NCBI GenBank assembly: GCA_008711295.1 | Contig: VUYV01000511.1 | Span: 202,205-266,204 of the forward strand | Length of the DNA stretch: 64,000 bases | Source: Anarhynchus alexandrinus | Lineage: Eukaryota; Chordata; Aves; Charadriiformes; Charadriidae | Reading direction: 5' to 3' | Shown: one piece after another, positions 6,201 through 61,989 of the stretch | How the letters are laid out: every line of letters begins with the position of its first letter | How positions within the stretch are numbered: the stretch's first letter is position 1 | Notes under the pieces: model-generated | Database searches by the model: none | Seen by the model: the letters and a program-made list of their open reading frames with translations, nothing else | Told to the model about the DNA's origin: nothing | Position numbers and translations under genes: made by a program

Positions 6201-8197
6201 ATTGTTAAAATTACAAGTTTAGCTGACAATAGTCTGAAGACTTACCTCCTGTTTTCTGAAATGGTTCTGAAACAGGTTCATCATGTCCTATTAAAAGAAA
6301 GGGGACCAAATCTTGCAAAACTAAGATTTGTAAAGCTGCAAAAGTTTATGCATTTTGTTACCTTTTAAATAATGTCAACAGCTCCATGGATGTATGTATG
6401 CATTTTCAGCCATGAATTAAAACCTTTGAAATGGTTAACAGAAAGAAGAATGTGTGCACTTTCTTTTACACTTTTTGTCTTTGAAGTGCTCACTGAGAGA
6501 TTTTTCTGTTGGGACTGAAAAATCAAAACAGTTGTTAAGGGCTATTTTGTCCTCCTTCAGTTTAATGTTTAAAATTCAACCTTGTTTTGACCTCTTGAAG
6601 ATCAAATTAAGTTCTTCTAACTCTGGTATGGTTTTGGATGCTTTTTTATGTCAGTAGTTGGAAAGCCAATAAAACAAAGTATTTTGAAACAAATATGGAA
6701 AACTTTGTCTATAGCTTGCTTAAGAAGGTGCCTTGGCTTTTATTTTTTCAAAAGTCACTAAGTAATAATTTTTTGTATGTTCAACTAGGCCTGCCTTAAT
6801 GGTGCCTGTGTTTTAGGAAACAGTGAGCTGCTAAGAAAATTTCTTTAGTAAAGTGTAACAGATTAAGTGTTTCTGAAACTAGTTATTTTAGAAAATGTAG
6901 TTATAGGGATGTGTGTAGAAAATGTGTCTGAAACTGAGCCACAGTGTCTATATTGTATTGAAAAGGTACGCAAAGTTTTGAAGCTTTGTAACTCAGTTTG
7001 ATGTTACAGATGCTATAGGTAGTGGATATCGTTATCTACAGCAAGTTTTGTCTGTAATAAGCTGAAAAATTCGTTGAAAATTTTTAAAAACTGATAGGAA
7101 GTTCAGCACTGGACATACCTATAGGAAATTTAAGATCAGATGTTATTAGAAATTAACAGTTAAAGAAGTTGGGGGGGAAGATGTTGGTAACTTTTCCCTC
7201 TCCTATATAGATTTAATAAAACGTGTAGGCCTAGTAGAAAGCAGATAGAAACAGTTATCCACTAAACTAACTTCTTACATATAAGAGAATGCTGTTGGCA
7301 AAATTACTGTCCTGTTTCTTTTGGGTTTTTTTCCTCCTTTTTCTTTCTGGACTTGAAAATAGACTGACGCTTAAAAGAATTTTAAAAGAAAAAACAAGGC
7401 TTGTAAACCAAATTGTGCTNAACTTGAAAATAGACTGACGCTTAAAATCCAAGGAATTTTCTAGAGATGCTTAAAATTCCTTCTTTTAGTATTAAACAAT
7501 AACTTCCTACAGGCCTTTTAAAAGAAACAGAATATGCAAATTCTTTCTTATTGTTTTGTAGGTCAGTATTTGCTTTTGAGCAAAGTTTTCCTGCTTTTAG
7601 CCTTATCCTAACATCTTTGTGCGCGCAATAATGCTTTGCAATGTGTATGGGAGAAGGAAACCACTGTATTTCAGTTAAGCCATGCTTGTTTGCAAGGTGC
7701 AGTATATTTTGGGACTGATACACTATTGAAATTGCTCCATTATTGTCTTGTTGTCCTGCCAGTGTTGAGCAGTCAGGCAGCTACCTTTGTGCCCCTTTTT
7801 TTGGGGGGGTGGGGTGGCTGGTGGGCAAGTGTGTGCTTGCTAAGATTCAGGAGGTTGTTGCCTTGATAGGGCAGGGAATTCATTATAAACAACTCAAATC
7901 TACTGCCTCTAGTGAATATTTATGGTGTGTTCAGTGGCAGTGTTTCACATGTTTTGGGCTATCATGATTTTAAAAGAAAAACAAGGCTTGTAAACCAAAT
8001 TGTGCTTAAAAACTTTATTTTTTCTAATGGATGGTCTAATATATATTTTTGGGGGGGGGCATTGATTTCTTCTTTTTTTTTTTCATCAGATACATCGAAG
8101 TAAGAACAAATGGAAGTTCTACTTAAAAGATGGAGTGATGTCCTTTGATGGTAAAGACCATGTTTTTGCAAAAGCCATTGGAGATGCAGAGTGGTGA
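185..8197 (+). CDS. GTF2A1L: GTF2A1L, TFIIA alpha/beta-like factor (3' six exons, 5' end outside window)
   Basis: This gene encodes a TFIIA large-subunit paralogue (ALF). In the nucleus it pairs with TFIIA-gamma and stabilises TBP on promoter DNA; in mammals expression is germ-cell biased. Joined exons are 185-240, 1438-1531, 2810-3408, 4948-5241, 6000-6089 and 8090-8197 (1241 nt), all with AG/GT borders and compatible phases. Recognisable stretches are YPIHVPAGVTLQT, QVFQPLGQPSV, an acidic EDDDEEDDEE run, DPLNSGDDVSEQD, and the C-terminal TFIIA-beta fold with VCQYDKIHRSKNKWKFYLKD and final AIGDAEW. The YPIHVPAGVTLQT segment belongs to GTF2A1L and not to GTF2A1, which also has Gln-rich runs absent here. 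The N-terminal helical domain is encoded before the window. The gene ends 6.3 kb from the LHCGR stop codon in convergent orientation. Confidence 0.95.
1438..1531 (+). CDS. GTF2A1L: GTF2A1L internal exon (94 nt)
   Basis: The acceptor is TCTCTAG at 1431-1437 and the donor is GTAAGA at 1532. The translation starts GASQAGATVTLPSG and then reads IAYPIHVPAGVTLQTAAG. The PIHVPAGVTLQT core is diagnostic for GTF2A1L. The exon ends in phase 1; the G completes a Gly codon with the next exon (G+GG). Confidence 0.93.
2810..3408 (+). CDS. GTF2A1L: GTF2A1L large linker exon (599 nt)
   Basis: The acceptor is TTTGTAG and the donor GTAAGA follows GAA AAG. It encodes GHLYKINVPVVVTQAPGDA, then QVFQPLGQPSVLQ, then a divergent Gln/Ser/Asn-rich linker ending in IAFSEK. 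The first 45 or so residues match the mammalian protein closely; the rest is the poorly conserved spacer between the N- and C-terminal folds. The reading frame stays open past the donor to 3465, but conservation stops at the splice site. Confidence 0.93.
4948..5241 (+). CDS. GTF2A1L: GTF2A1L exon with Taspase1-type site and acidic region (294 nt)
   Basis: The acceptor is CTGTCAG and the donor GTAATC follows GTT GAG GAG. It encodes 98 residues containing GIIQLDGTGDVSPKEE, then ENEFIGII, an acidic EDDDEEDDEE tract and a Ser-rich run leading to EEPQIDIVEE. The QLDGTGD motif at 5023-5043 fits the Taspase1 consensus Q-hydrophobic-D|G used to cut TFIIA alpha-beta precursors. The first codon is ATG but is internal; phase 0 joins it to the preceding exon. 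Confidence 0.93.
6000..6089 (+). CDS. GTF2A1L: GTF2A1L exon (90 nt), start of TFIIA-beta domain
   Basis: The acceptor is AATCTCTAG and the donor GTACAG follows GAC AAG. The 30 codons read DPLNSGDDVSEQDTPDLF and then DTDNVIVCQYDK, near-identical to the vertebrate TFIIA beta-barrel segment. Both ends are in phase 0. Confidence 0.96.
7351..8006. repeat. Duplicated contig ends around an assembly N, exposing a ~520-bp indel
   Basis: Segment A (7351-7376, 'acttgaaaatagactgacgc' plus ttaaaa) recurs at 7422-7447. Segment B (7380-7419, containing 'caaggcttgtaaaccaaatt') recurs at 7967-8006. The order is A-B-N-A-(~520 bp)-B. This is what results when a short allele (A joined to B) and a long allele (A, 520 bp, B) are strung in series across a gap. 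It lies wholly inside the last GTF2A1L intron and does not touch coding sequence. Confidence 0.75.
8090..8197 (+). CDS. GTF2A1L: GTF2A1L terminal coding exon (108 nt)
   Basis: A long T tract ends in CATCAG. The exon reads IHRSKNKWKFYLKDGVMSFD and then GKDHVFAKAIGDAEW followed by TGA at 8195-8197. These are the TBP/DNA-contacting beta-barrel strands, and AIGDAEW is the invariant TFIIA-beta C-terminus. The protein end is therefore complete. Confidence 0.97.
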   Translation: MHRSKNKWKFYLKDGVMSFDGKDHVFAKAIGDAEW

Positions 8198-14480: not shown

Positions 14481-15729
14481 TTAATTTTCGTTGCCAGACA
14501 TCTTGTCTCGTACTGCGGGATACGGCTTCTCTAACGCCGACAAGAGCAGCAGTGCTTGTGAGGCTTTGGTGGGGCCTGGGGCTGAGCTGCCGTTCTTGCA
14601 GTTGGAGGTATAAGCGGAGAAATAGTTCATCCTGTAAAGCTCTGCTCGGCTCTTGCAGCAACCAAGCTTGCTCATCAGCAGAAAGAAGTCCCTTCGAAAT
14701 GCTTTGGTGAAAATCGCGTAGAGAAATGGGTTTGCACAGGAGTTCACGGGGTAAAATAAAACCAGCAAGATCTTGGAGTTTGTCACTGTGATGAGAGGCA
14801 CTTTAAAGGCAGCGGATATGGCAAAAAAGGAGATGGGGGCCATGCAGGTAAAATCCGTGAAGATCAGTATCGCCATTCTCTTGGCGACCTTGGTATCTTT
14901 ATTGGCGGCTACCAGCTCTGGATTCTGAACAGCTATGTAGATCTTAATGTAGCAAGCACAAATGACAATGAAGGCAACAACGTTTAGCACTAAGATCAGC
15001 AGTATGTAGGCTTGGGAGAGACCCGTTTCAATATCCATGGGTAAACAAATGCTGACCTTCATGTAACTGCTGACCCCGAGGAGGGGCAGCACTGCTATTA
15101 AGATGGAGAATATCCAGCCACCGAGCATGATGGGCACGGCGTGCCTCAGTCGGAGCTTCCGGTCCAGCTGCATGGCGTAGGTGATCGTATGCCACCTTTC
15201 TATAGTGATCACCGTTAGCGTGTACACTGAGAGCTCGCTGGCAAACACGGTGAAAAAGCCGGCAGTACTGCAGCCGCTGCCTGTTTGCCAGTCTATCGCG
15301 TGGTTGTAGTACTGACCGCTTGTCTGGGCATCGACAGAAGCGATGAGCAGCAGATAAAGTCCCATGCAAAAATCGGCAAAGGAGAGGTTGCACATGAGGA
15401 AGCGAGGAACAGTGAGCTTGTAATGGCTAGTTATGAGAACGAGGAGTACAGTGAAATTGCCAGCAATGGCAAGGATGTTTATAAACCAGATCAGGACTCT
15501 GAGAAAGCCGTATCCCAGAATGTCTTCGCAGGGATTAAATGCGTCTGGTTCAGGAGTGCATGTGAGTATCTTCGGCTGACAAAAGTCATACTCAAAGTCA
15601 AAGCCAGTCATTTCGCTGTCATCGAAAATGTCTGAGTAGCTGTAAGGAGAGGTTTCTTCATCTGTTGTGAACAGGTACGTGTTCTTTTCTGCTGACCACA
15701 GTGATGTGTTGTAAGAGTCATCTCTGTAA
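14481..15729 (-). CDS. LHCGR: LHCGR exon 11: hinge end, seven-transmembrane domain and tail
   Basis: The acceptor (TTTTTTAATAG) precedes 15729, and the stop TAA is at 14483-14481. The exon gives one split codon and 415 residues. A sulfotyrosine-type hinge motif FDFEYDFC is followed by [19 protein letters not shown] and TM1 ([19 protein letters not shown]). Conserved features are [19 protein letters not shown] (TM2), the Cys pair GSGC and SICLP, ERWHT at the DRY position (TM3), [19 protein letters not shown] (TM6) and [16 protein letters not shown] (TM7, NPxxY-like). The GCCKSR cysteines after TM7 are likely palmitoylated. The N-terminal hinge part is about 30 residues longer than in human and has an NTS glycosylation site. 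The tail ends in SGNEN, unlike the mammalian end. Confidence 0.98.
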
Positions 15730-18700
15730 CTATTAAAAAAACCAACCCCCCACACATAGAAGTCAACTATTTGTTACATGCTGCTTGCACTCTTTTATAA
15801 AACACAACAGATAACAGTTGTTTTAAAACAGTTACCTCCTAGCTGTGTTTCTACAGGGTGTTTACAAATAATGAAGCCTTGTAAGGATGCCTTTTGTTTG
15901 GGTAGCAGCCGTGGGGAGCAGCAGAGTTCATAGTCGCATCCATGGGAATGCTTTCTTATACAACTTACTTATTTGTAAGTACTTCATTGCTTTGTAAGCG
16001 AGCCGTCTTTCTCATGCTGCCAGTAGACTGCAGTTCAAACTACAGTAACACTCAAATTGATGGATTATGGGTTTGATGCATATAGGTTTATCTGACAGTT
16101 ATAGAAGCCAAACTAAAGCAACCTAAGGATTTTAACTGTGCACCCTTACCTCCCTTATCAAACAAAGTCCTGAGACTATGTATGATGTGGGAAGTGCTGA
16201 GGAATTTGATGTTGTGAGGAGTAGAAGTGCATGGTTAACTAGATAATGTCAATGATTAGGAATATATTAAGTTTAGACTGGATTCAGTGCCTAATTATAA
16301 ATGTTTCTAGATGTTTAAAATACATCTCTCTAATGTCCAGGACATCATTAGTGTGGGGATAAGCCTACCAAAGAAGAAACATATTAAAAACAAGTACTGT
16401 CCCTTCTGATTCCCTGCCAGGACAGGTACCTATGACACAACTATCCAATCATCTCAACTGTGAGTGTTTGGTGGGCAAATACTCAGTCTGCAGTGCGAGA
16501 CTTGGAAAGCATCTCTATTGAGGACAGCTCTTCAGAAAACTGGTAGCTTTCAGGTAACTTAAATACATGCTTAAACTTTCACACCTACTGAAGCATGTAC
16601 ATTAAACTATTTTTCTGAGACAGGGTCTTAACTGGCAAATGAAGCTGAGCTGCTTTTCAGCTATTCCTCTTGGGCAAATAACTTCCCAGTCTTGTTATCC
16701 TAACTCTTCTCTCCTTAGATTAAAAACTGCCCAATATCTTGCTTTTACTTGCCTAGGTTAAACTGGAAGTGTAGGGAATATGTTTGACTCTATTTATTAA
16801 TAAAAAAAAGATTGTGATTTTCTGCAAGGCCATGTAAACATGCTGCCATGTGCAAGCTGGTTTTTTTCTTCTAATAAGAGCTCGGGATGTTCAGCTGATT
16901 TCTGCTGTGGTTACAAAACTTTTCAAATTCCATCCTTTCAGCCTGTGAATTATGACCTTTCTTCCATTTGCTAAATATAATGTCTGATCAGAGAATTGCT
17001 GGGATTGGGACTTACCAAAGCAAAAGGCTTCAGGAGCCAATAGTCTAGGCAGACTATTTAATGCACAGCAGGAGTGCAACAGATGCTAATCTGAAGCAGG
17101 GGGATTACTCTGTCGTAGGCACTGGTGATTTGTGTGATCGTATCCCTCACTGGGGTGTTACTTCACTTGCCTTTATAACGTGATCTAATGCACTGTGTGT
17201 ACCTCCTTGCCTCACCTTGCTTCTCCCCACAGCCACCCCTGATAGAGGCAATATATTCTCAGTCTTGTTGACTGCCTGGACTTTGCCGTTTTGTAGTCCT
17301 GAAGTGCTTCAGTTTTGCAGTTAGGAGTGGAGTGGACAGGACTGATGAAGCGAGGCGCTTGAAGGCGCTGCAGGCAGGCAGCAAATAAGAGGCGGTGACA
17401 AGAGAATCAAGGCAGCTGCTGCTTTACAAAAGGCCAAATAAAAACAAGTGGCAAATGAAGGAAGCCTCACCAACCAGCAATCGAGATAATGTCCAAGGAA
17501 GTCATTATCCCAATGAATCAATTGCATTTCAGCTGTACTTATCTGTTGGAATTTTGTGACCATAATCTTGTTTTTTCTAGACTTTACAATGCTTTCATCA
17601 GGGCTGATGAGAAGTCCCAAGGTCACCCATTTAGCTGTAGAGGGATGGATAGTAGCAAATTCTTAAACTTCTCCATTAAGTACTGGTTTGGAGGCTATGT
17701 CATCCAGCATGGCCAACACAATAGTTTTGATGTTAGCCTTTCTCATTGTCCCACTGAACACCGTCAAACAGAATCGTGATGATGTGGAATGACACAATTG
17801 GAAGAGGTAAACCAATTGCATGGGGTCATGAAAATTCGAACTCGGGGGCTCTGTTTCTGCCATGGAAAATTACTGATATACAGACTTCTAATTGTCTTTT
17901 CTATAGGCAAAAAAATGTTAATAGTGACAGCTCTTCTTTGAATTACACAAACAACTGCAATTATCTCAGGGCATGAAAAGTCTCCATGTAGGCCATTAAC
18001 TTTCTTAAATATTTAATCACTGTTTTGAAAGTCTTTCAAGAATTCATAAGAGTAGCTGGAGTGAGTAAAGCTCGTAAAATTAGGTTTTTCTTCCTTTCCT
18101 TTTGAACATCAAAATTGCAAATCTTGGTTTAATGGTAGTAAAATTAGCACTGTGCAAATTGTAAGGGTGACTGAATTGGCAGCAAAAGACATGCTGTTCT
18201 AGAAAAAATACATGAACAGCAAGAGGGGGAGGTCTGTATTTGCTACTTGCAGCATCTGTATGCAGAGGGGTACTTACAATATTTCATTAGTTGGTTTCCT
18301 CATGGTGCTTTCACACTCTTTGGAGAAGTTGTCAAAAATGGAAAGCAAGGAATTTTGTCTGAAAGAAGGATGAAAAGAAAGTTCAGTCTGGGTTTTGGCC
18401 AAATTCTCATCTTCTCTGCAAATGATCTTCACAGATGTGTTAAGGTAAGCTAGAGCTGGCCTCACAGCAGTGTGAACATTCATGTAGACCTCTGGAAGAG
18501 GAGAGGAGAAGGCTTCAAATACTGCGACAATAAGCAGTACCTCTTGATGTGGGGTATAAGGATGGTCTTTCAGCTCCATTTTTGTTTATGATGTATTTTT
18601 TTATAGTGAAATAAGTTGAGCTGGAATTAAAAGGTATATTTTGCCTCATGAAATATTGTATTGAAGTGGGCCAGGTTCTCCACCAGTATGAATGGTAGCA

Positions 18701-21700
18701 GTTGTTCTGGCTTTTAGAGAAGTTCACGTTAACAAATGCTGGGAATCTGGCAAGATACTCTTATTCTGAAAACTGTTTGGGATCTGGAGGTAGACTACAT
18801 GCTGGAAGTAAAGCAGTTTGAAAAGTACAAGTTGAAAGATGACAGATTTTGCCAAATATGTTTTTGAGGCTTTGAAAGTGTGGGCCAGGTACTCCTACTG
18901 GTGCGAATGGAAATGGCTTTATCTGACTTCATTGCTGTGACAGTAGAAAGAGCCATCGAAAACACGAAGCTTTTTTGTGTACTCTTAAGAGAATCAGACA
19001 CCTGGAAGCTTACAGAAAGTTTTGTGTATAATGACAGACATAAGATACCAATCCAAGCTCCTATGTGATGCTTATAAATAATGGGATTGCAACAGAAGTT
19101 GTTTTTTCTTGTAATTTTTTGAAGATGTGGTATAACCTGCTCCCCTCCCACCACTCAAGCCAGTGGAAGAAGGTCTAGAGAACTGAATGCTTCTTTCCAC
19201 CTCTCTTGCATGGCTCAGGGAGTGAGCACACCATAACTGTAAGCCAGAAATCTCAAGAATATTTGGTCTGAGGACTGAATTGGAGTTTGGTAGCAATGGA
19301 AACCTTTGACTGTAGGATCTTTTCTCTACTCTTGCAGAAGCAGGAACCAATGAGTAAAATGAGGTAGGCAGAGAAAGCGTAGCATCACCCCTAATTTTAC
19401 CCTAAAGCATTGGACTCTCTTCCTGCCTTTGCAATGCAGTCCTGATGTGATGGCATGCAAGCCACACAGATCAGGTTTCCCACAAATGACTGCTCCATCT
19501 TTTCTGTAGCCTTCATTTGAGACAGAGGAGAAGTGTGGCATCCTCACAGCTTCACCTAAAGTCATTTGGAGTTGCTTTGGCTGCCTAAAGCCAACTGAGA
19601 GTTGATTTCTTTGAAAGAAAAATGCTGAGAAATTGGCTCCAGTTGTCTCAGAGTGCCTGCCCCGAATTAGCAGATGCAAAACTTTCTCTGCACCATGGTT
19701 TCCAATTCTAGGGAGAAAAATACTGACTATTGTTATATGAAAGCACTGGAACTAAACTGAGTAACCTCTTTCTGTAGGCTCGTGTCAGGTCCTAATTTCG
19801 GCTTTTGAAAGCCTGCCTTTTCTACAAGGTCATCATATCACCTGCATTAAATAAGCTACATGGCTAAAGGCTACAGGGGGTTCTTTTTTTTTTTTTAAAA
19901 AAAAAAAAAGGACAATGTGCTATTGATGGAGGTAGATCTTCCACGTGCCAGTAGACTTTTTTTTTTTAATTGAGATACCAAGAAAAATATAAGCTTTAAG
20001 CAAACTTTAGAATAATGTTCCTGCTGGCAGAACCTGGGCACAGGATGAGATCCATTTCTGTTCAAAAATAAATGGAAATAACTTTCCTGGCTTTAGCTGA
20101 GATCTGTTGTTTCATGCAAGGCCTTGCTACGTACCACAGCTTCCTTATAAGCGGAATAAGGATAATCAAACCTCGTGAGCTGAATAGAGCAGAATTGCCA
20201 CTTTGGAGCTTCTGAAGTACTGCGATGCAATAATGTGCTATTTGGACTTACTTTTCTGTCCTTAGATTTCGAAAAGCACAGCAGTGGCTGGGATACGTTA
20301 GAACAGCTTCCAGAAGACTGCTGAATTTATCCAGCGGTGGCAGTCTCTTTAATGAGTAAGATGACGTTGCATTTAAGACTTGAATGGCCTCGAGCCCGTA
20401 ACTAGGCAGGGACTCCAGCGCCGTTGAAGAAATATCCCTGCAAAATAAAGAGAGCATTCTCTTTTCTTTCAAAATGTATAAAAATACCACCAAAGCACGA
20501 TGGTAGGTAACAGCGACTCAGTTTTTCACAAAGGTTTAAATCTGCAAAGCCACTTCAGCACCTGATACCCAGCTCAGAAACGTGGTCTGTGAAACTACAG
20601 AGCAGCAGGGTAAGAACATCCCTGTGGCCCAGGAGCCCCAGTGTGGCAAGAAGCTTGCTTTGTGCTGGAGAAATCAAAACCCACCACACCAGGGGTTGTG
20701 CTCTGACCTCTCCATTTGAAAGGCGCCGTGCATGGAGCAAGTGATGGATCTTTCGGTCAGGGAAAGGGAGAAAAAGCGGGTGAATATGACTCTCCAGCCA
20801 GTTTAACAGGTAGGACACCCTCCTGTCTCTCCTCTTGGCCAGGACTCTTTTAATTAATGGGTATTCATTAAAACACGTAAGAGTCCATCATTCTTGCCAA
20901 GACAACCTTAAGCAGTTTGTCTTAGAGTAACTTCAAAGGGGCTGTTTGTGTGAGGAAAGGCCACCAACACAACCAAGGATTTTCAGAGTGAGGCTATTAA
21001 AGAGGGGGGAAAAAGACTACAATTGTGAAAGTCATATTAGTAATGCCGTGTACTGTAAAGCACCAGTAAAAGCAACAAAATGGCACGTGAGGCACAGAGT
21101 GCTATTTACAGAGCCACCCATTGTGTTTTATTGCATGGAGTTACAGCCAGTGCAGCCCTCCAGTAAGTACTTGATTAATAAAGCATGAGGATGATAATAA
21201 TGTGTTTTATTCAGCACAGGCTTATACCGTGCAATCAGCTAGTTCACTTTTATAACGAAATTATAAATAATACCTTGTAAAAACAAAGTCATCCTACCAA
21301 AAGACAAGTTATTGGTAATGTCAGAATATAAGGCACAAGGGTAGGATCAGGAGGATCTGACACAAAAAAAGCAAAGGATGAAATATGTAAGGGGCAGAGG
21401 TCAATGCCAGTGCTAGAACTGGTTTTTTTTTTTTGTGTCATTGTTGTGGTGCACCATTTGTCATGGTGCAAACTGTGCCTTCCCCCCTGTAATTTCATGG
21501 CATCTCATCGATGTGTTTCCATTTTACAAGCAGAGGATAAAAGATCAAGTCTCCTTCCAGACTCAAAGCCCGTGTTTGCTGAGATGACGCAGCCCACGAA
21601 GCACAGTGCAGTTCCTGTGGGACTCCTATACACCCAGGTGACGGAGTGGTGGGTACTTACAGGAGTGGTGGGTAACATGCAGGGGAAAAACCCTGTGGCC

Positions 21701-24700
21701 CCTCTCAGGGCATCGTTGTGTATCCGCCTGAGGTTCTTATTGTCCTTCAGGATTCTGTGGAATCAAACATTAACTCTTTACATCTGTATTTTAGAATAAC
21801 CCTTTTTTGGTTTCTTCTGCCTGCCTATTTCCTCTCAATCCTCTCTCCCAGCACAGTGGCTGCTGTTGCAGTGTCTGGCTCATCATTCTCATGCGACCTT
21901 TCCCTCTGCTGATGCCATCAGACTATTATAATCTACACTTAATTCCGATCATTTCCAATTTCTTCTGATTTAAACCAGGACCAACCAGTCTGGTTCCTTC
22001 ACTGCAGTAACCCAAACTGGGCTGCCCGAAGCAAGAGGCTAATCCCAGAGTGTGTGAGAGTGATTTAAAAATGAGTGGCCATTTCCAAATGTAAAATGTA
22101 GGTTCCTCAGTTTGGGCTATGGTTTCAAGCTTTCCACTATTGCTGCTATGTTTAAGAATTTATTAAATCTTATTAAAAATGATGAGCTTTTCTCACCAAA
22201 ACTGCAGCGTTCTATGGGATGGTGTTTCAGGAAAAGCAGTAAGTGCTGTAGGATTAACAACGGAGTTGCAATGACACTGAAACGTGCAGTTTTCTAATGG
22301 GCATCAGGAAATGCAAGATACAGTTAAGTTAAGCTGAAGGAAGAGCCTTTGACTGCATTTGAACTATTATTTACTGCTTAAGAAAAACACTGAGGAGGGG
22401 AAACATACTCACAGTTGATTCAGCTTTGTCCCATTGAAGGCATGGCTGTGGATATCTTCAAATCCATTTTTATATAATTTGCTGGGGATTAAAAAAAAAA
22501 CATGCAGGGGAAAAAGATTTGGAAAAGACAAGATTATGTTCTGTACTACAGGTTTCAAATCTTAATGCTGCATTCATTTTAATGTCTAGAGAGTCTGGCT
22601 TACAAAGAACATAGGTAACTACTGCGTTACTTGCATTAACTCTAAAATTAAGATAAAATTGCAGCTTAAATTCCCTAAGCACCTTCCTGTTTAGCTGTTG
22701 AAGAGAACTTCTGCTTACTTACAGCTCTTTCTTCCTCCAAGGGGTTCACCTGTGCCTACCTTGGGCTGTGATGCAGAAACAAGACATGAGTCCAGGTAAG
22801 TTCCTGGCATGCAGACAACAACCTGGAGGCAGAAGACCTGGATTTTGTGGTGTCAGCACGTGTAAATGCAAGACTGCAAGGGCTAGAGAAGAGGAGAGCA
22901 ACTCTAAAGCCCAGAGGGTGCTGCTGGATTGCAGATCCTCTGCGGACAGACAAATCTTCCAGCAGCCTAAGAGACAGCTTTACGGAGAGGCAGGGGTGAG
23001 TCGTGCATCATCCAGCGGTCAGTGAGCGATCAGCTCCTCCAAAGTACTGCTGCCAGGCTCCGTTTGTGCTGTGGAAACCTTGCTGTCCCCTGTGCTGCAC
23101 AGGGACACTTGGTTCCACCCTGGGTTCTTGATTCCCCATCCTGGGGCCAGAAACCTAAGGCTGGGCTCTCTGCTCCACCTGAAGTCCAGCTCCTTTCCTG
23201 CATTAGGAGATCTAACCTATGGATCTGATTTCACTGAGAAAAATCCATTTGTCATATTAAGTTAACGTTTCCAATATAATTTCAATATAATCATTTGTAT
23301 ATAGTGATTTTTTTTCTTTAATATTAAGCCCTAATAGAAAATTTGGCTCAGTTTATAAATTACACAAAAGTTCTGTTGTTGCTTTTCCACTTGTTTTTGG
23401 TAGAGCAGAAACTGGGACTATAGAACCTGCTCCCAAGAAAAGCTGGAAGTGTGGGGAGTGCCTGGCTACATCTGATAGAAGGGGTCTATCCCAGCACAAT
23501 GCTGAAATCAGTGATTTGCTTAAAAAAAACCAAAGGTACGTAGGATTGATTCCCCATCCACATGAAACACTAACTGTTGGAAAGACTAAATTAGCTATTT
23601 GTAGTGGAAAGTATTACTGCAGGCTGACTTTACACCTTCATAGATTACTTGTGTTTCACCAGACCATGCTGTGACAACTGGAATTACTTCAGCTAATTAC
23701 AGTTAACCGCATGGGGTGGAGTTAACATGTAGCTCTACTATTAGACAGCTGCTGATAAAGTAATTCTTTTCTTCTTGCGGCGAGCTCCCTATCACAAAAG
23801 GGATGGCAGAAAAATGATCTTTGGCTGTTTCCTGACTGAGTTAGACTCTCCCCCATTTACTACACTTTAGGGTGACAGTAAAAATTTTAAGCATCTTTCT
23901 CCATCTCTTGTATGTTCATTTTCTTGCACCATTAACAGAATCATAATTTTGCCGAAGTTATTTTGAGAACTTGCTGGTAGGAAAGAGGCTCGTAAGATAA
24001 AATGATGCCCTAATCTAAGCAATTGCTCCTCTTTAACATTGCGTGGAGTAGTCTTCAATCACGTTTATGCTCGGTGCCTCTAACGGTTTCAGAAGGTACT
24101 GGTCAATACATAAAATCTGTGTCGAAATTACTGTCGTGCTGGCACATTAGCCTGATGAAGGGCCCGATTCAGTCAACTGCAGTACTTGCCCGTGTGCACA
24201 GCTCATTTGCGGCTGCAAATATGCATGGAGCTTTGTGCGGGGGCTTTAGTACGCACTTGTCTCAAGGCAAGGCTCCCCATCTGCCTTTTTAAAAAAAATC
24301 AGTCTGGTCAGCAAAGGTTGGCTTTACTGGCCTCCAGACTGGTGTTTGTGGCTATGACACAAAGTAGGTGGCCTGCTGCTGCCCTCTATTGCTCAGCTGG
24401 TCCTTCCTCGAGAGGCCTGAATTTCAGCCGCATCCTGCAGAGAGGCTCAGTCTGTCATTTTTTTTTTTATTTTTTTTTTTCCTATTTCAGCACTTCTTTG
24501 TGGAAGTTTTTGTGAGGACAAGGGTGCTGCAAAATCCATACATGGTTCTCGCTGTGCTGGCAGCTGATACCTCACTTTGGCTTTTTGCTGCTTTTTCTGT
24601 TCCTCGGGTGGGGCATCTCACTTAGCATCAAGTCCACCTGTCTCACAGGTGGCTGTAGGAATGAATCCACAGTTTGCTAAAAGGTGGGAATCGACGTAGG

Positions 24701-27700
24701 CTGGGTCAGGAGAAATCAGGGTAAGAACAAGCATTGGTACTTTGTACCAATTTCTTCTCTCCCTTCCTCTTCTTCAGAGGGACCCTGTGCAGCTGAAGCT
24801 CAGGAGTGTTAGATCTGTACTATCAGCCTGGTCAGCCCCTGAAAGCACTATTTCAACAAACTGCATCTCTGAGGGAAAGAGAAAGACTTTGGCCTCCAGC
24901 GCAGCTTTTGGAGTTTATGCCCTGTTGATGGTATTTTTAAAAACAACGTTGCATGAAAGATGAGGGTTTTGATTCCTCCTCCCATTTTTTTTCCTAAGCG
25001 AAGTTAGCTTTTGGATAAAACCCTGGTCTTCAGCTCGAAAAACACCCCTCTATTTCCGAAGTGTTCCAAATTTAAGTTGCAATACAGACATGTATTGTAG
25101 GGGGCTTAATTGCAAGATTTTTATAAAGTTGAGCTGCTGTCCTCAGCAGAAGTGTTATCCTCACAGAAGGAACCGGAGCTAGGACTATTTTACTTACAGT
25201 GTCAGCGATTCATTGTTCATCCCCTGGAAAGCATTTTGTGGTATAGTTGTCATACGCAAGTTATCGCAGAGCTCCCTTTGGGAGGAAAAAAAAAAAAGGT
25301 ACTTTTGTCAGTGATCCAGGAACAAGATGGGAAAGACTCACAGCTGGGTTAGGGTGGGTCTGTACTTACAAAATAAAATGAGCTTCTAATGAGAAGATCT
25401 GTGTCAGGTCTGGAAATTGTCTTATTCCAGTGTTACAAATGCTCCTAGAGAAAAGCATAATTCCTATTTGCAGGAGAAAAGATTACCAGAGGGGATGCAA
25501 CAAGAAGCCAACTTGGTAGGTACGAGTTTAATGATGTTTTTAAAGGTGAGTGACAAATACCATAATTTCTAACTAGGCTCCAATTGTGTTTTTAAGACCT
25601 GTAAAAATTAAGTTTTGTAGCATCCTCGAGCAGTGTCCTGTTCTCTCTACATTAAGCACAAGGAATAGATTTTAGTTACCCTTTTTGCATGGTATCTTGT
25701 CTAGCTGAAAGCTTTATTCTAGAAACAAGCACTTAGCAGAACTAATTTGCAGACTTCACTACTGTTTTGTCCATTACTGCCCTGCCCTGGGTTACTTTAT
25801 TTTCTTGCCTATTGAAAGACCTTGCTATTGGTTAACTGCCCATTAAAGCTATCGTAAATGATGTATGTACTTTTAGTGTACTGTAATGCATGAAAAACTT
25901 TTTTTTTCCTTATACTCTTCTTTGTAATTTGTCCACTCTTTTAGAGGAAAAAATAAAACCCAACAAAACAAACCCAACAGGCAAAAAGAAAAGAAACAGA
26001 ATGCTTTCTTACAAGTATTTTAGCCTTGGAAGGTTTCTGAATGCTCCGTCCTCGATGTGCAACAGATTTTTTGTGTTCAGGATTAATCTGTAATGAGGGA
26101 AAAGAACCTAGTATTATAATTGTTATACATTTGGGAGGGTCCTGAATTTTGCTAGTGATTGGCATTGTCAGAAAACAGTCAAGTGCAGAATATCGCAGAA
26201 GGCTCTCTCTCTGTTAACAAACTTCTTAAAAATATACCACGAGTGCATTTTGAAGCACTACTGGTAATAAAAATGGCCTGTAATTGTTAGGCAGCTGACA
26301 AAAGATAACAGCTCCTGAATTCTCGTGGTTCACAGAGCTGAGATGATCTGGTGTGGATATCCTGGTCACTGGTGGGAGTCGGCATTTTGCCATCGTCTGC
26401 TGGTTCTTTGGGATATGCGTTCTGGGCTCATGGTATGCCTAAAGCACTCAGCTTTTGCTTTACCGCATGGGCTCAGAGGCACGAGCATGCTACTGTCATG
26501 ATGGCTGTGCCTCCACCTGGTGGTCCTGGAGGTGAGGCTGAGCAAGGAGCTCTGTGCGTGTGTGTGGGTGCCTGGTCCTTGCCCTACAATCGGACCCCTT
26601 TGCATCACACCTTGTTTCCATCATATTACTGATGCTCTGCCTTGTCAGGAAAGGCAGTTCCTGACATGGTTTAACCTCTTAGTGCACCATGGTCTTTATT
26701 AGAGCAGTAGCTAGATGCCGACTTAGATCAGCATAAACTGGAAGATGGAGATAAGTATGTGAGAGGTGGGGGTCAGTCTCTTTTCCCAGGTAACAAGTGA
26801 TAGGATGAGAGGAAATGGCCTCAAGTTGTGCCAGGGGAGGTTTAGATTGTATATTAGGAAAAATTTCTTTACCAAAAAGGTTGTCAAGCATTGGAACAGG
26901 CTGCCCAGGAAAATGGTTGAGTCATCATCCCTGGACGTAAGGCGTGTAGATGTGGTGCTTAGGGATATGGTTTAGTGGTGGACTTGGCAGTGTTAGGTTT
27001 ATGGTTAGACTCTGATCTTAAGCGTCTTTTCCAACCTAAATGATTCTATGAAATACTGTTTGCTAGTGGATGCCCAAAAAATGGGACAGACCCTCTCAAT
27101 CAAGTAGCACTTTCTGCAGCTATACTATCTGGTAAACATGTGTGTTTGCATAAAAGCCCAATAGCCGTAGTCCAGCTCCCTCCTTATGCGTGATTTACAA
27201 AATTAAAAAGTTTTAGCATATGAAATTGCAACAAGAATTCAAATCAAGAATGCCATTGAACCCACCTACCCTGATCATCCATTGAAAATGGTCTTGAGTG
27301 CATCTGGGGACATCAAGCCCTTACAGTCTGAGGCCTGAAGAGCATTCAAGACTCAAACAGGTTTTCTTGCAAGCCTCCTGTAGCTCTTTAATGGTCTTGC
27401 TTAGCTTTTTGGTTTTGGCAAATGACAACCTATCCATAATCAAATCTGTTATTCTGTCCCTAAACCCGTCATTGAGTCTAGTGGAAGTTGGACCCAATCA
27501 GAGGTGGATAACTCTCTCTCTCTCTTTCTTGGTGAGCAAGTAACTGGCTTCAATGGAGTTCACATATAAGGAAAAAAAAAAACTTATTTGTCCTCACTCA
27601 GTTGCACCATTTTTAAGCCACTTGCTGATCATGCTGTGCAAAAAAGGCAGTAATGAGATATTGAATCAGATTTATAGTTTCCAATTTCACTAAATATTTC

Positions 27701-30700
27701 AGAGAGTTCTCCTAGTCATTGCTTTAACTCTCTCTTTCAGATGCCTGTGCTATGCAGGTCAAGTTTAAAATCAGTACATGTTCTGTTTGAGTAATATTTC
27801 AGCGCTCAAAAGAAGAGCTATGCATACTAAGCAGCTGTATTTAAATACTGTAGGACTTGAAAAACTGCATCTTCAAAAAGGAAGATTTTTCTCATCTGTT
27901 GTCGTCTTGAATTATTTCCCGGCTTAGAAAGCTCGACAGTGCCGGCAGAAGTAGAGACACAACTCCACTCCTGTCGTTGAGCTCACTGATAGCATTGGGA
28001 CTTTCTACGCATGGATGTCTTTGCATGATTTAGATCTCCAAGGCTAGACCTTACAGAGTGCTCGCTATTTTATATGGTTCTTCGGAGAGAAATGTTTCTC
28101 CTCATAGATCTAATCCAAAGCCAACCGAAGTAACAGAGAAAGATTTGGTCCAAGAATATTTCTCTGCAGACTGTTTACTCCTTGATGATCCTAAATCACA
28201 ACGTGGGTGCCTTTCTTTAACTGATGCTTACATTTCGGACAACGTGGGAAGGCTGTCAAATGCGCTCGCTTCTATTCTCTCCAGGGAGTCGGTCTGAGAG
28301 ATTTCACTATAATGAAAAAGGCAGACACAAAGCAATACATTAACGGAAAAGATACCAGAAATCAGCTTTCTACGTTGTATTTCCTCCTTTTATACACAGT
28401 TGTTCAACCTCCGTCCCCCCCCTACCCCCACAGTTCTTGTTTGTCAGCCGCTCTTGAGAGCGGTGGCCGGTAGGGTTTGACAGAGACCAGCCTTTTGCTG
28501 TCTTGGCAAAGAGGTATGCCAACCCTTTGGAATAAGTATCTCCATAACAGCCAATCTCCATTTTCTGAGTAAATTGTAGGTAAGGTAGCGACTAAGGGCC
28601 AGAACAAATGTAAACAGAGCGAGCCCAAGCCTGTGAGCCTTTTTCTCCTATCGTTAGTCCCACTTAGTGAGTTTATTTGCATGGGCAGAGGTGTAGATAA
28701 TGTTCACGGTGCTTCATACACTATTATTAAGTCAGGATGACGGTCATCTAATCCACAGATGCAGAAATACACAAATATGCATATAGTGCACTTTATGAAT
28801 AATTTTCAGATTTAAATGCCATTTTCATTACATGCATGCAAACTGAAAGGAAGTGGCTCTTTTTCATCATTACACCAACCAACATGACTTTTTGTAGGCA
28901 CTGTCAGATTTTGATATACTGATGCTCTTATTCCGCACATGTACTTAGGAATAACCAATGTTGAATATAGAGAGAAAAAAAAAGATCCGCTTATTTGATG
29001 CTTGTTAAATGCCTGCTAGGTTAAGATTAATGGGGCTACACAAAATTGACGCCTGAAAGTAATATAGTATATATTGATGCATATATAGGGGAAAGGTCTT
29101 CATAACAGTGTTTTCTCTTGACAGAACTGACTGGAAGGGCACACAAACTACATGCGAGATTATACACTGTCAGGAAAAGAATCTTTTCTAAGCAACTGGA
29201 ATGCATCTACAAAATCAGAGTCAGTATTGTCACAGTCCTGAGAGTTATCTTATTTCAATTATAATGACGAGAAAACAATTCCTATTGGTGTTGATATAAA
29301 ACCCCTGAAACCAGAACAAATCTTTTCTTCATTTGTAGTGGCAAAGGGGGATGCACACTAGAGATCTTATATTAAACATGTATGTATTTCTTACAGAAAT
29401 ATTCATGATTTTTTCCATAATCAGAATTCAGCGAGACTGTTATTTTGGTATTGCATAAATGAAAGATGGATCTAGAACAAGTGGCCTGCTGAGCGCCTGA
29501 TCCTCAGAGACTCACGGGCTGGGAGGGATCAGTGACTGCTCGTAGAACTTAAACTCTTTCAGGTCTGGGGTCTGAAACATGGTCCTTCCATGGGCTCCCT
29601 CCTGTCTGCTACTGCCTCTCTATTTACATATGTTTGAATGAGTTATGGCAGTAAGAATAATTTGTCATCTGATTTGCAGTTGGTGATGAGTTGCCAAATA
29701 GATGATTTAGAGATTTATAATTTAAAAAGATGCATTTTTCAAAGTAACACTAAATCTCAATAAAACTATGAAGTGTTCTATAGATTTACTTTCAGACAAA
29801 TACATCGATTTCTAAGCTGTTAATTTGGAGAGATACATTAAAAGGATGCAAGGAAATCAATTAAATTCTCTTTATGGAAAGGAAAATGTCAATGAACAAA
29901 AAAATTTCTGTGAAGAACAGTATATGCATACAGTTAGGAAAAGTTTAGCCTCAAGTCCTACAGGTAGGAGAAACTGTAGATTTAAGTTGGTCTCCCATCT
30001 GAAAATGATAAATCCTCATTAATCATTAAGATGCAAGAGAATGCAAGAATACAGCATCATTGGATTGTACTATAACACTTTATTGCAGTGGAATACATGC
30101 AGCAGAATTTAGCTTATTTTCTACTTGCTAGAGCTACAGGAACACATAAGTTTATAATTTGACCAAAACTGTTTAACCTATGGGCACTAGAAGCTAAATT
30201 AGCCCAGTTGAGTCTATTCAAGCACTGGCATTACCCTCATCCTTCAAGTCTTTGCCTTCAAGAATGCACCATGAAAGGGTTTCTTATTTCTCTTTTTGTT
30301 TCCTTGAAAATAAATTATGTAACATCTAATATATATATTAATATCAGGTGCACTATGTGTTTTTCATAGGTGAATCGAAGTATAAAAAGTGCACCTTGAA
30401 AAGAAAGTGGCATTACTTGTGCTGCTGCTTAGATTCTGGGGGTGGTCATTCCCCTGTTCTGCATTGCACTGGTGTGTCATCAGCTTCATCCTTTATAGAC
30501 CACTCAATGCAGATAAAATAAAAAAAATAATAAGTAATGGAGACTCAAGCCTGCTGTCTTTCAGCTGGAATAAAAACAGAAATAAGGGCAAGAGTGGCCA
30601 GATGAGCCTTATGACCGGAGTCCTTGATATAACAGGTACCGAGCCAAGGGGGGGAAGCAACACGGACCGGGTGTGCAAAATTACAGCACTTGTAAACCAA

Positions 30701-33700
30701 AAGATCCAAGAAAGGGTTCAGTCCTACTGATCCCCTGCCAAGCTTATCTCTCGGTGCAAAACGCCAAAGAAATATCTTATTTGGGTATTATGTAAATGCA
30801 TAATCGCAGAATGCCATAACTATCATTGCGGTGGTAATGTTTGGTGACAGAAATCTATCTCCTCTGCCAATCAAAATCTCCTCTCATCAGCTAATTAAGC
30901 TTTATCCAATTCTCTCTGACATGATTAATATTTCATTATGTGATCTGTTAAACAACTGTTATAAATCACACCTTTTCAAAGAATCTTTTATATGCTGCTT
31001 AAAAGAAATGCTACGTTTATCCTTCCCCAGTGGGTTTTTTTTTTTCACCAATAGTATGTTTTAGCAACACATTTTCACATTATTGTGAAAAGATGTTGTT
31101 TGGGATGGAGGTTTATGATAGAATGTCTGACAAGAAATTAAGGAAAAACCTATGGAAAATGTTGTCAACTTACATGATGAAGGCATCTCTAAGTCCTTCA
31201 AATGCGTGTGATGGGATTACTTTTACAGGGAGATGAGTGAACGATCTGAAAAAAGAAGAGAGGGAGGAAAGGAGTGTAAGGCATGGGCTTTCCTTGGTTA
31301 CAGATTGTACCATTACGGCAGGGAGAAAAACAATAAAGCATATTATTTGCCTGCGGTTCTCTGTACCTCTGGGCCCTGATCCGTTTACCATTGATCTCAG
31401 ATAAATGGAATTCAAAGGATATTTGGTCAGTTCCTCAACAGCGTAAATTTGAGACTAATCACCATCAAATCAATAATAATCATAACCTATTAAGTAAATT
31501 AATAGCCTGATGGAAGTCAGCTGCTGCATTCACAGTCAAAGGAAGCTATAGGCTATTTCAAGTTAGTTCCTCTTAAAAAGTGGCTTTCATGCAAAGCTTT
31601 CTCTATAAAACAGTATCTTTGCATTCGCTGGACCATGTTCTCCTCCCAGCAGTATCCCTGTAATATTGCAGTGTGGCACCCCGAATTCACTGGCAATGCT
31701 CTGGCTGCGTACAAGTGTAGAAGAAATCCAAATTAGGCCTGATAGGGTGGTGGTTTTTTTTTTTTTTACACAAATTGCATCGGTGTAGNGTGTAGAAGAA
31801 ATCCAAATCAGGCCTGAGAAGGTGGGTTTGGTTTTTTTTACACAAATTGCATCGGTGTAGTTAGTTGATTAAAAGCAAGTGTGTATTTTCCTTTTTAATT
31901 TTTTAGTTACTCTGACTGAGAAGTTAATAACGATGTGGGAGACAAATCTTCATTTTACCATTCTACTCCGCATCTGAATCACAGTACTTTTACCAGCCAA
32001 TGTATCTAGCCATGACCACACTCTCCCTGATAATGGCCATAGGAAAATATTTAACATATTTCAAGACGTTATCTTTGTGCAAGCAGATAATTGCTCCATT
32101 TTGCTTTATAATTAGAAATATCTAGTCAGAGACATTTGTTTCTCATCCTTAAACTCCTTCTCCCCCACCCCCCCCAAGGTTTTTTGACTGAAATGTTTCT
32201 GTGCTATTCATATAACCTACTTTTTTGCTTTGTTGTCATAATCCTTTATACGAAGGCAATTAAGAATGTTTATCAACTTTTATATATATAAACGTATTTT
32301 TTGTATATATACACACATGTCATGCCCACACAATATAATGGCAGGCTGTCACACATACGTATGTCTTGGGGTTACAAATCTAGATGTGCTAAGGAGCCTG
32401 GCAGCCAATTCCTAGCTATGTTCCAAATAGTCCGTATGATTTGGGGCAAATCATTTTGTTTCCTTGCACCTCGACTCCCTGTCAGTAAACTGGGAATAAT
32501 AATGCCTCCCTACCTAAGAGGGATGTTGTGAGGATATATATGTTTTTGATGCCACTGTGATTGGGTCATACCTGTCTCTAGATGAATGGTGGCGTGTTGT
32601 GTTGTGCGTGAGGTTTGGTTAAATCAGAAATCATAGAATAGTTTGGGTTGGAAGGGACCTTTAAAGGTCATCTAGTTCACATCTCCCCCTGCAATGAGCA
32701 GGGGCATCTTCAACTAGATCAGGTTGCTCAGAGCCCCGTCCAACCTGGCCTAGGAATGAAATGAAATGAAGTCATGTATCTTGAAAAATGTATTTGCCCC
32801 TGAGGGGACAGACAGGTAGGGATAACCTGCAGTAGGGCTTGATACTCTGAGCCAAAAAAGGGAGAGAACTTCAGGAAGAGGTAAAAAGTAGAAGCTGAGA
32901 AATTCCTGCTCTATAACCCTGGCAGCAGGAACCTCTCGTAACTGCACCATCAGCTGGGGCTGCCTGCAAAACAAAACATACCTTTTGGGAAACTCTTTGC
33001 AGAAAACATTATCATTTACAAAAGAAATAGAAATGTGACTGAAAGCGCAAAGAATAAAACCAGGTCTTGGCTTTTAATTCCATCAAAAGCACCTTCAGCC
33101 CAAGAGCCTCCTACCTCTCTGTGACATGCCAGTGAGCGGCGTGGTGGCTGTAAATTCCCACAGTGCGTGGCTTGGACTGACCCGCTCCCCCTGCCTGCAG
33201 AAGGCCTTTGGCAGCGGTGCTCCGAGCTCAGCCACCTCAGCTATGTGATTAAATTTAAGTAGGATGACCCAGCACTTTTAATATGTATTGTAGTTAAACT
33301 GCATGATGGCACTTAATCCGTTCTGTATTTCAACATCATTGGGTTTTGTTTTTTAATTCTCGTGAATTCACCTTGATAGCTGGAACTGTGAACTCATCTG
33401 CATTGACATTACCTCGTCCCATTAAGCATCTCACAAAATAGCAAGAACAAAGGAAAAAGGCAATTCATAATCAGCCTTCTCTCTTAATCCTCGAAATACT
33501 GGTGTAGCGCACATAGACACTTCCACATCGATAAAGACATCTTAAATTCACCCAAAAGGTAAATGTTCCCATCCCTATTCTTGCCCACTTTACCTTTGTG
33601 GTTTGTATCTCAAAACCTGCCTGTGTTAAAGGGAAACATGTCCATTTAGATGTCTCTTTCTATACTTACAACGTTTTGAAGAAGATCCTTTAGCTTGCTA

Positions 33701-40817: not shown

Positions 40818-40933
40818 GCTCCCAAAGTCAGGCAAAACGCGTCTCTAAAAAAGAATTCATTTGACAAACCAGCNCCTCCCAAAGTCAGGCAAAACAGCGC
40901 ATCTCTAAAAAAGAATTCATTTGACAAACCAGC
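40818..40933. repeat. Two ~57-bp direct copies abutting an assembly N
   Basis: Copy 1 (40818-40873) and copy 2 (40875-40933) share ctcccaaagtcaggcaaaac and 'aagaattcatttgacaaacc', with N at 40874. They differ by small indels (acgcgtct against acagcgcatct). This looks like unmerged contig ends. Confidence 0.8.
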
Positions 40934-61929: not shown

Positions 61930-61989
61930 GGCATTGAATATAATGAAACGGCATTGAATATAATGAAACAACATAGAGTCTAATGAAGC
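61930..61989. repeat. 20-bp tandem repeat, three copies
   Basis: The unit 'ggcattgaatataatgaaac' is perfect at 61930-61949 and 61950-61969. A degenerate third copy, aacatagagtctaatgaagc, lies at 61970-61989. Confidence 0.9.

What the first reader, a model, noticed from the sequence alone, without database searches (positions are those of the whole stretch)
21643..21754. Duplicated splice donor at LHCGR exon 8 creates a strong frame-breaking site 19 nt downstream
A 13-bp word repeats with a 19-bp period at the exon 8/intron 8 border. The family exon is 75 nt, but at that point the minus strand reads CCCTG|CATGTT, with no GT. Exactly 19 nt further lies TCCT|GTAAGTACC, an excellent donor; using it gives a 94-nt exon, a frameshift and TAG at the 12th codon of exon 9. 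A weak GTTACC donor at 78 nt keeps frame and inserts one extra residue before DISS. If copy 1 is removed, the sequence becomes CCCTT|GTAAGTACC with an exon of exactly 75 nt. So a small duplication seems to have split the coding end from its donor. The species may splice at a weak site, produce mixed truncated isoforms (a soluble ectodomain fragment), or this may be an assembly error or allele.
Basis: partly seen in the sequence, partly recalled or inferred. Interest (0 to 1): 0.75.

Follow-up and report, generated by a model that had tools for sequence, protein, structure and literature searches.

The report
Patchwork lesion at LHCGR exon 8
In this bird genome the end of one exon of the luteinizing-hormone receptor gene is replaced by a short patchwork that looks copied from two neighbouring introns, which should break normal splicing; it is most likely a rare damaged allele or an assembly error, and raw reads are needed to tell.

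Summary
In detail: a 13-mer repeats at period 19, exon 8 has no GT at its 75-nt family boundary, a strong donor lies at 94 nt, a weak in-frame GT at 78 nt, and the 94-nt join meets TAG at the 12th codon of exon 9. The explanation changes. The donor core GTAAG is not duplicated. Of 61 top homologous proteins (60 bird, one turtle), 57 end exon 8 in GPDVL or GPDIL and 4 lack the exon. So the PDVL end is missing here, and removing one repeat copy would not restore it. The 30 nt before the strong donor begin with a 17-mer found exactly in intron 6, 825 bp away, and continue with the 13-mer from intron 8: 29 of 30 nt come from two same-strand neighbours. Best reading: a complex indel with a two-template insertion that shifted an intact donor by 19 nt. 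Predicted: frameshift with nonsense-mediated decay, or in-frame exon 8 skipping. I favour a real loss-of-function-type allele (0.5) over an assembly error (0.35), which stays serious because the assembly has false joins nearby and in a gene I take for TSHR. A fixed, functional splice innovation is unlikely.

The parts
21680..21754 (-). LHCGR exon 8 up to the family boundary (75 nt); reads ILKDNKNLRRIHNDALRGATG then FFP where birds have PDV
   Evidence: alignment to solved LHCGR chains
21661..21690 (-). 30-nt patchwork occupying the place of the last 11 coding nt (PDVL end) before the donor
   Evidence: GPDVL/GPDIL in 57 of 61 homologous proteins; 29 of 30 nt covered by two neighbouring exact matches
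21674..21690 (-). 17-mer TTTTTCCCCTGCATGTT, first piece of the patchwork
   Evidence: exact second copy at 22499-22515
22499..22515 (-). putative template of piece 1, in intron 6 just upstream of the exon 7 acceptor and beside a T tract
21662..21674 (-). 13-mer TACCCACCACTCC, second piece of the patchwork (overlaps piece 1 by one T)
21643..21655 (-). putative template of piece 2, positions +6 to +18 of intron 8
21655..21660 (-). strong donor GTAAGT, displaced 19 nt from the family position; using it makes a 94-nt frame-breaking exon
   Evidence: score 6.89, U1 -6.8 kcal/mol
21671..21676 (-). weak in-frame GT (GTTACC) after a 78-nt exon; would give GFFPCM-DISS
   Evidence: score -0.28, U1 +0.7 kcal/mol
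   Evidence: score -0.72, U1 -3.5 kcal/mol
20252..20437 (-). LHCGR exon 9 (186 nt), intact; carries the premature TAG when joined to the 94-nt exon 8
22413..22481 (-). LHCGR exon 7 (69 nt), intact; joins in frame to exon 9 if exon 8 is skipped
25198..31245 (-). LHCGR exons 2-6 (31245-31174, 28306-28232, 26087-26013, 25444-25370, 25275-25198), with open frames and normal donors; exon 1 was not located
14481..18358 (-). LHCGR exons 10 (18358-18278) and 11 (15729-14481), open to the gene's own stop

Best explanation
The end of LHCGR exon 8 carries a complex indel with a templated insertion. Shown: the conserved PDVL end is absent, and the 30 nt standing before the donor are covered, all but one base, by a 17-mer identical to intron 6 (825 bp upstream in the gene) and a 13-mer identical to the start of intron 8, both in direct orientation. 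Inferred: a break or stalled fork was repaired by copying in two steps from these neighbours (polymerase-theta end joining, or replication template switching), losing about 10-11 nt and adding about 29-30, so that the intact GTAAGT donor moved 19 nt. Inferred from donor strengths: the spliceosome mostly uses the displaced donor, which gives a frameshift, a stop 34-36 nt into exon 9 and nonsense-mediated decay. Some transcripts may skip exon 8, which keeps frame but removes 25 residues of one leucine-rich repeat. I judge it most likely a rare loss-of-function-type allele of the bird that was sequenced, since the other exons examined are intact.
For: Of proteins P0001-P0061 (60 bird, one turtle; some species occur more than once), 57 of 61 end the exon in GPDVL (54) or GPDIL (3); the other 4 are models that lack the exon. 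Five further avian rows of the 120 listed add 3 with GPDVL and 2 without the exon. The 17-mer occurs 6 times in the 1.19-Gb assembly, and 2 of the 6 are this pair. In 20 control loci of 10 kb, 0 of 10 complex direct matches of 15 nt or more lie 133-1000 bp apart; in the window 2 of 10 do, this one and one touching a single-N join. Two-piece cover of the 30-mer is 29/30; of 21,914 random 30-mers scored, the 7 complex ones reaching 29 all fall in one tandem array, L012. Exons 2-7 and 9-11 are open, and the donors of exons 2-7, 9 and 10 are normal. The donor score at 94 nt is 6.89 against -0.28 at 78 nt and -0.72 at 63 nt. Small deletions with templated inserts copied from close to the break are a described product of polymerase theta in C. 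elegans (PMC4490562, passages), and insertions built from several templates are modelled for human meiotic breaks (PMC7615360, passages).
Against: No reads, RNA or close relative's DNA could be examined. The assembly makes false joins: 3 of the 4 single Ns in the window sit between unmerged overlapping ends, and a segment of at least 417 bp is repeated at 100% identity with a single N between the copies in a gene I take for TSHR. There is no long microhomology at the switch points. A damaged allele of a fertility gene should be rare.
Confidence: 0.5

Rival explanations
1. Assembly or consensus error: the genome has an ordinary exon 8, and the patchwork was made when contigs were built, joined or gap-filled.
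For: False joins occur in this assembly: overlapping duplicated ends at the single Ns at 7420, 31789 and 40874 (3 of 4 in the window), an unmarked jump of about 520 bp inside the contig end at 7351-7419, and a segment of at least 417 bp, 100% identical, repeated 2084 bp apart with a single N between in a gene I take for TSHR. The assembly shows one copy of the region and every other exon located (2-7, 9-11) is intact. No protein fetched carries FFPCM or MLPTTP (137 proteins), and a search with the predicted truncated protein gave 17 hits, 16 named and none avian, one unnamed at 65% identity.
Against: No N lies within 21500-21900. The single N in control locus L009 follows a run of C and shows no duplicated ends by eye, so not every join is of this kind. 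The inserted pieces are 17 and 13 nt, shorter than the overlaps that assemblers usually accept (recalled, not tested). Short two-template inserts are typical of DNA repair.
Confidence: 0.35
2. Fixed species change that is tolerated: the species splices exon 8 at the 78-nt GT (GFFPCM in place of GPDVL), at the 63-nt GT, or routinely skips exon 8.
For: Frame is kept at 63 and 78 nt and by skipping. Models that skip exon 8 in frame are listed for Heliangelus (P0012), Prinia (P0035), Pitangus (P0057) and camel (P0107). The other exons located show no decay.
Against: The in-frame GTs score far below a perfect GTAAGT, which lies 16 nt from one of them. The exon end is GPDVL or GPDIL in all 57 of the 61 proteins that have the exon. 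In people 'Exon 8 and S616Y deletion', compound heterozygote, is listed with Leydig cell hypoplasia (PMC7565105, table passage).
Confidence: 0.08
3. Simple 19-bp tandem duplication of the donor region, as first proposed.
For: A 13-mer repeats at period 19 and the net displacement is 19 nt.
Against: The other six bases of the unit match at 0 of 6 places, GTAAG is not copied, the PDVL codons are missing, and the model leaves the 17-mer match to intron 6 unexplained.
Confidence: 0.04
4. Regulated soluble-receptor device: the displaced donor is kept to make a truncated ectodomain.
For: Truncated ectodomain isoforms of LHCGR are described, such as human exon 6A (PMC5377329, abstract and passages).
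Against: The stop lies 150 nt before the exon 9 junction with two more exons behind it, so decay is expected. The search with the truncated protein named nothing avian. The human 6A product showed no affinity for hCG (PMC5377329).
Confidence: 0.03

Closest known systems
Polymerase-theta-mediated end joining with templated inserts (PMC4490562, C. elegans; human germline indels, PMC7615360; passages seen)
   Same: Small loss (about 10 nt) plus an insert copied from sequence near the break, here from two templates in direct orientation
   Different: One template is 825 bp away; clear microhomology at the switch points is not seen; the ancestral DNA of this species is not available
Short-range template switch mutations in great apes (PMC7954356; abstract, part 1 of section 8 and section 11 read)
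   Same: Cluster of changes explained by copying from a nearby template; poly(dA:dT) tracts are enriched near those events, and the intron 6 template here adjoins a T tract
   Different: As I recall, the events modelled there are reverse-complement copies; here both pieces are direct copies
False duplications in draft bird assemblies (PMC9516828, passages seen)
   Same: Duplicated sequence on the same scaffold, with gaps between the copies, in exonic regions
   Different: No gap at this site, and the pieces are far shorter
Inactivating or splice-altering LHCGR variants in people (exon 8 entry in PMC7565105; exon 6A in PMC5377329; passages seen)
   Same: Altered ectodomain exons of the same gene, with truncation or loss of a repeat
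   Different: Different lesion; no phenotype or RNA is known here

Membership tests
LHCGR (lutropin receptor) gene | LRR exons in phase 2-2 plus a glycoprotein-hormone-receptor transmembrane exon, best match LHCGR | tested here: met
   Best hits are lutropin-choriogonadotropic hormone receptors at up to 96% identity; LHCGR chains 7fii and 7fig are the best solved matches; exon lengths and frames; exon 1 not located
Simple tandem duplication | Whole unit copied head to tail; removing one copy restores the ancestral sequence | tested here: not met
   Only 13 of 19 nt match and GTAAG is not copied; the family end GPDVL is absent
Templated-insertion indel (theta end joining or template switch) | Inserted bases match nearby sequence beyond chance | tested here: met
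   29 of 30 nt in two pieces; separation control 0 of 10; genome count 2 of 6
Templated-insertion indel (theta end joining or template switch) | Microhomology at the switch points | tested here: inconclusive
   One shared T between the pieces; none seen at the 5' end; the ancestral exon DNA is unknown
Templated-insertion indel (theta end joining or template switch) | Present in the organism's DNA, with an ancestral state in relatives | not testable with these tools
   No reads and no other bird's DNA; the ancestral state is known only as protein
Assembly false duplication | Gap between copies and haploid or lower read depth | tested here: inconclusive
   No N within 21500-21900; read depth not available

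The most novel reading that the evidence does not exclude
A wild bird lineage carries, at appreciable frequency or fixed, an LH receptor whose exon 8 end was rewritten by a two-template repair event, and fertility is kept by an altered junction (GFFPCM), routine exon 8 skipping, or a mixture with truncated receptor.
Probability: 0.08. Interest if true: 0.6.

Novelty: new member of a known kind. Interest (0 to 1): 0.3.

Why it matters
If real, it is an unusually legible repair scar in an essential reproductive receptor, with a direct prediction for splicing. It would be useful for studying LH signalling and carrier frequency in a wild bird. If it is an assembly error, it warns that this assembly's models for LHCGR (and for the gene I take for TSHR) should not be used to infer receptor evolution.

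Tried and rejected
Simple duplication: rejected (see rivals). Compensating acceptor for exon 9: the AG 23 nt upstream of the normal acceptor would restore frame with the 94-nt exon, but it lacks a pyrimidine tract by eye and was not scored; I do not favour it. GC donor at 74 nt (CCCT|GCATGT): breaks frame; rejected by inspection. Second LHCGR copy or intact allele elsewhere in the assembly: the 401-nt DNA search found only this place. The protein search scored 62 of 151 candidates and gave 35 matches; the LHCGR exons among them lie in C511 at the window. The next best matches, in C511 at 354-361 kb and in C100, I take for FSHR and TSHR (names inferred, not tested). A dispersed repeat family behind the 17-mer: the four other genome copies share no flanks that I can see beyond A/T runs. 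A shared lesion in other birds through a truncated protein: 17 hits, none named as avian. The pattern G-FFP was also found in one shark protein, P0137, but in an earlier repeat, not at exon 8. The protein database is clustered at 90%, so members hidden behind a representative (480 behind P0001) were not seen. Literature on LHCGR exon 8 splicing in birds: four searches, listings only (20 of 23 shown, 10 of 10, 4 of 4, 15 of 34), named nothing on this lesion; most subscription journals are not held. Donor scores use a position matrix recalled from the Shapiro-Senapathy type of table, not MaxEntScan. No structure prediction was run, because it would not separate allele from error.
Full report
What was checked. 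The window lies in a 1.19-Gb assembly of 1,076 contigs (contig C511, 202205-266204). On its minus strand it holds LHCGR exons 2 to 11 (72, 75, 75, 75, 78, 69, 75, 186, 81 and 1,249 nt, the last including the stop), which join into one open frame when exon 8 is ended at the family boundary of 75 nt. Exon 1 was not located.

The gene is otherwise sound. The protein is up to 96% identical to bird lutropin receptors, and LHCGR chains are its best solved relatives (7fii and 7fig, human as I recall). The donors of exons 2-7, 9 and 10 score 5.27 to 9.12 on a recalled donor matrix; the displaced exon 8 donor scores 6.89, and the in-frame GTs at 78 and 63 nt score -0.28 and -0.72.

The exon end is not just shifted, it is rewritten. 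Among the proteins P0001-P0061 (60 bird, one turtle, P0049; some species occur more than once), exon 8 ends in GPDVL in 54 and GPDIL in 3; the remaining 4 (P0012, P0035, P0055, P0057) are models without the exon. These are the first 61 of 120 listed rows out of 2,170 hits. Five more avian rows lie further down: 3 end in GPDVL and 2 lack the exon. The window reads GFFP and then runs into the repeat. So the codons for PDVL are missing, and a plain 19-bp duplication cannot be the whole story.

Where the new bases come from. The 30 nt from 21690 to 21661 begin with TTTTTCCCCTGCATGTT, which occurs exactly once more in the window, at 22515-22499 in intron 6. They continue with TACCCACCACTCC, which recurs in intron 8. 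The pieces overlap by one T, and only the last T before GTAAG is left over: 29 of 30 nt. Controls: in 20 other 10-kb loci of the assembly (10 from C511, 6 from C6, 4 from C91) there are 10 complex direct matches of 15 nt or more within 1 kb, and none is more than 132 bp apart. The window has 10, of which 2 are more than 132 bp apart: this one and one that touches a single-N join. Of 24,000 random 30-mers drawn from the window and those loci, 21,914 were scored (the rest had N nearby). Eight reach a two-piece cover of 29; the 7 complex ones come from one tandem array in L012, and the eighth, of low complexity, was not listed. The draw also hit this site one base off, at 28. In the whole genome the 17-mer is found 6 times. 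By my arithmetic the 4 other copies give a rate of about 3 in a million for a same-strand copy within 1 kb of a given place. A search with up to 3 mismatches expects 0.34 matches in the window by chance, and 4 of 100 shuffles had at least 2; exact matches are much rarer.

How it would act. The original-type donor GTAAGT is intact and 19 nt too far away. Its use gives a 94-nt exon, a shifted frame and TAG at codon 12 of exon 9, 150 nt before the next junction, which should trigger nonsense-mediated decay (established rule, not tested). Skipping exon 8 joins exon 7 to exon 9 in frame; models with that join exist for three birds (P0012, P0035, P0057) and a camel (P0107), but whether RNA supports those models was not checked. 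In people 'Exon 8 and S616Y deletion', compound heterozygote, is listed with Leydig cell hypoplasia (PMC7565105, table passage), so skipping is probably not harmless.

Allele or artefact. For an allele: the patchwork has the form that polymerase-theta joining or template switching leaves (PMC4490562, passages; PMC7615360, passages), the pieces are very short for an assembler's mistake (recalled), and there is no N at the site. For an artefact: the assembly is faulty at small scale. Three of the four single Ns in the window separate unmerged overlapping ends, one such end holds an unmarked jump of about 520 bp, and in the gene I take for TSHR a segment of at least 417 bp is repeated at 100% identity with a single N between the copies. 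The fourth single N in the window (38875) lies in GC-rich sequence with only weak matches, and the one in control locus L009 follows a run of C. False duplications are documented for earlier zebra finch and hummingbird assemblies (PMC9516828, passages). Without reads I put the real allele at 0.5 and the artefact at 0.35.

Limits. No other bird's DNA was available, so the ancestral exon end is known only as protein, and the direction of copying (intron 6 to exon 8) is inferred from the fact that exon 8 is the copy that departs from its family.

Noticed in passing
L040 (G000:C100:157200-159700): A segment of at least 417 bp holding an exon of the gene I take for TSHR is repeated at 100% identity 2084 bp apart with a single N between; probably a false duplication.
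   Followed up: partly
window 7351-7490, 31715-31860, 40819-40933: Single Ns at 7420, 31789 and 40874 separate unmerged overlapping contig ends; at 31789 and 40874 the two ends differ by substitutions or small indels.
   Followed up: yes
window 7351-7419: The contig end jumps about 520 bp without a mark: its first 26 nt match 7422-7447 and its last 41 nt match 7967-8006 with one gap. Deletion allele or chimeric contig end.
   Followed up: partly
window 61930-61969: Perfect 20-bp tandem duplication GGCATTGAATATAATGAAAC x2.
   Followed up: no
window 21528-21754 (minus): The frame of exon 8 stays open through the patchwork and into intron 8 to at least 227 nt from the exon start; chance or a possible extended exon.
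   Followed up: no
P0053, P0055 (Lathamus discolor models): Models that skip exon 9, or exons 8 and 9, joining to exon 10 in frame; exon skipping in the avian LHCGR ectodomain may be common.
   Followed up: no
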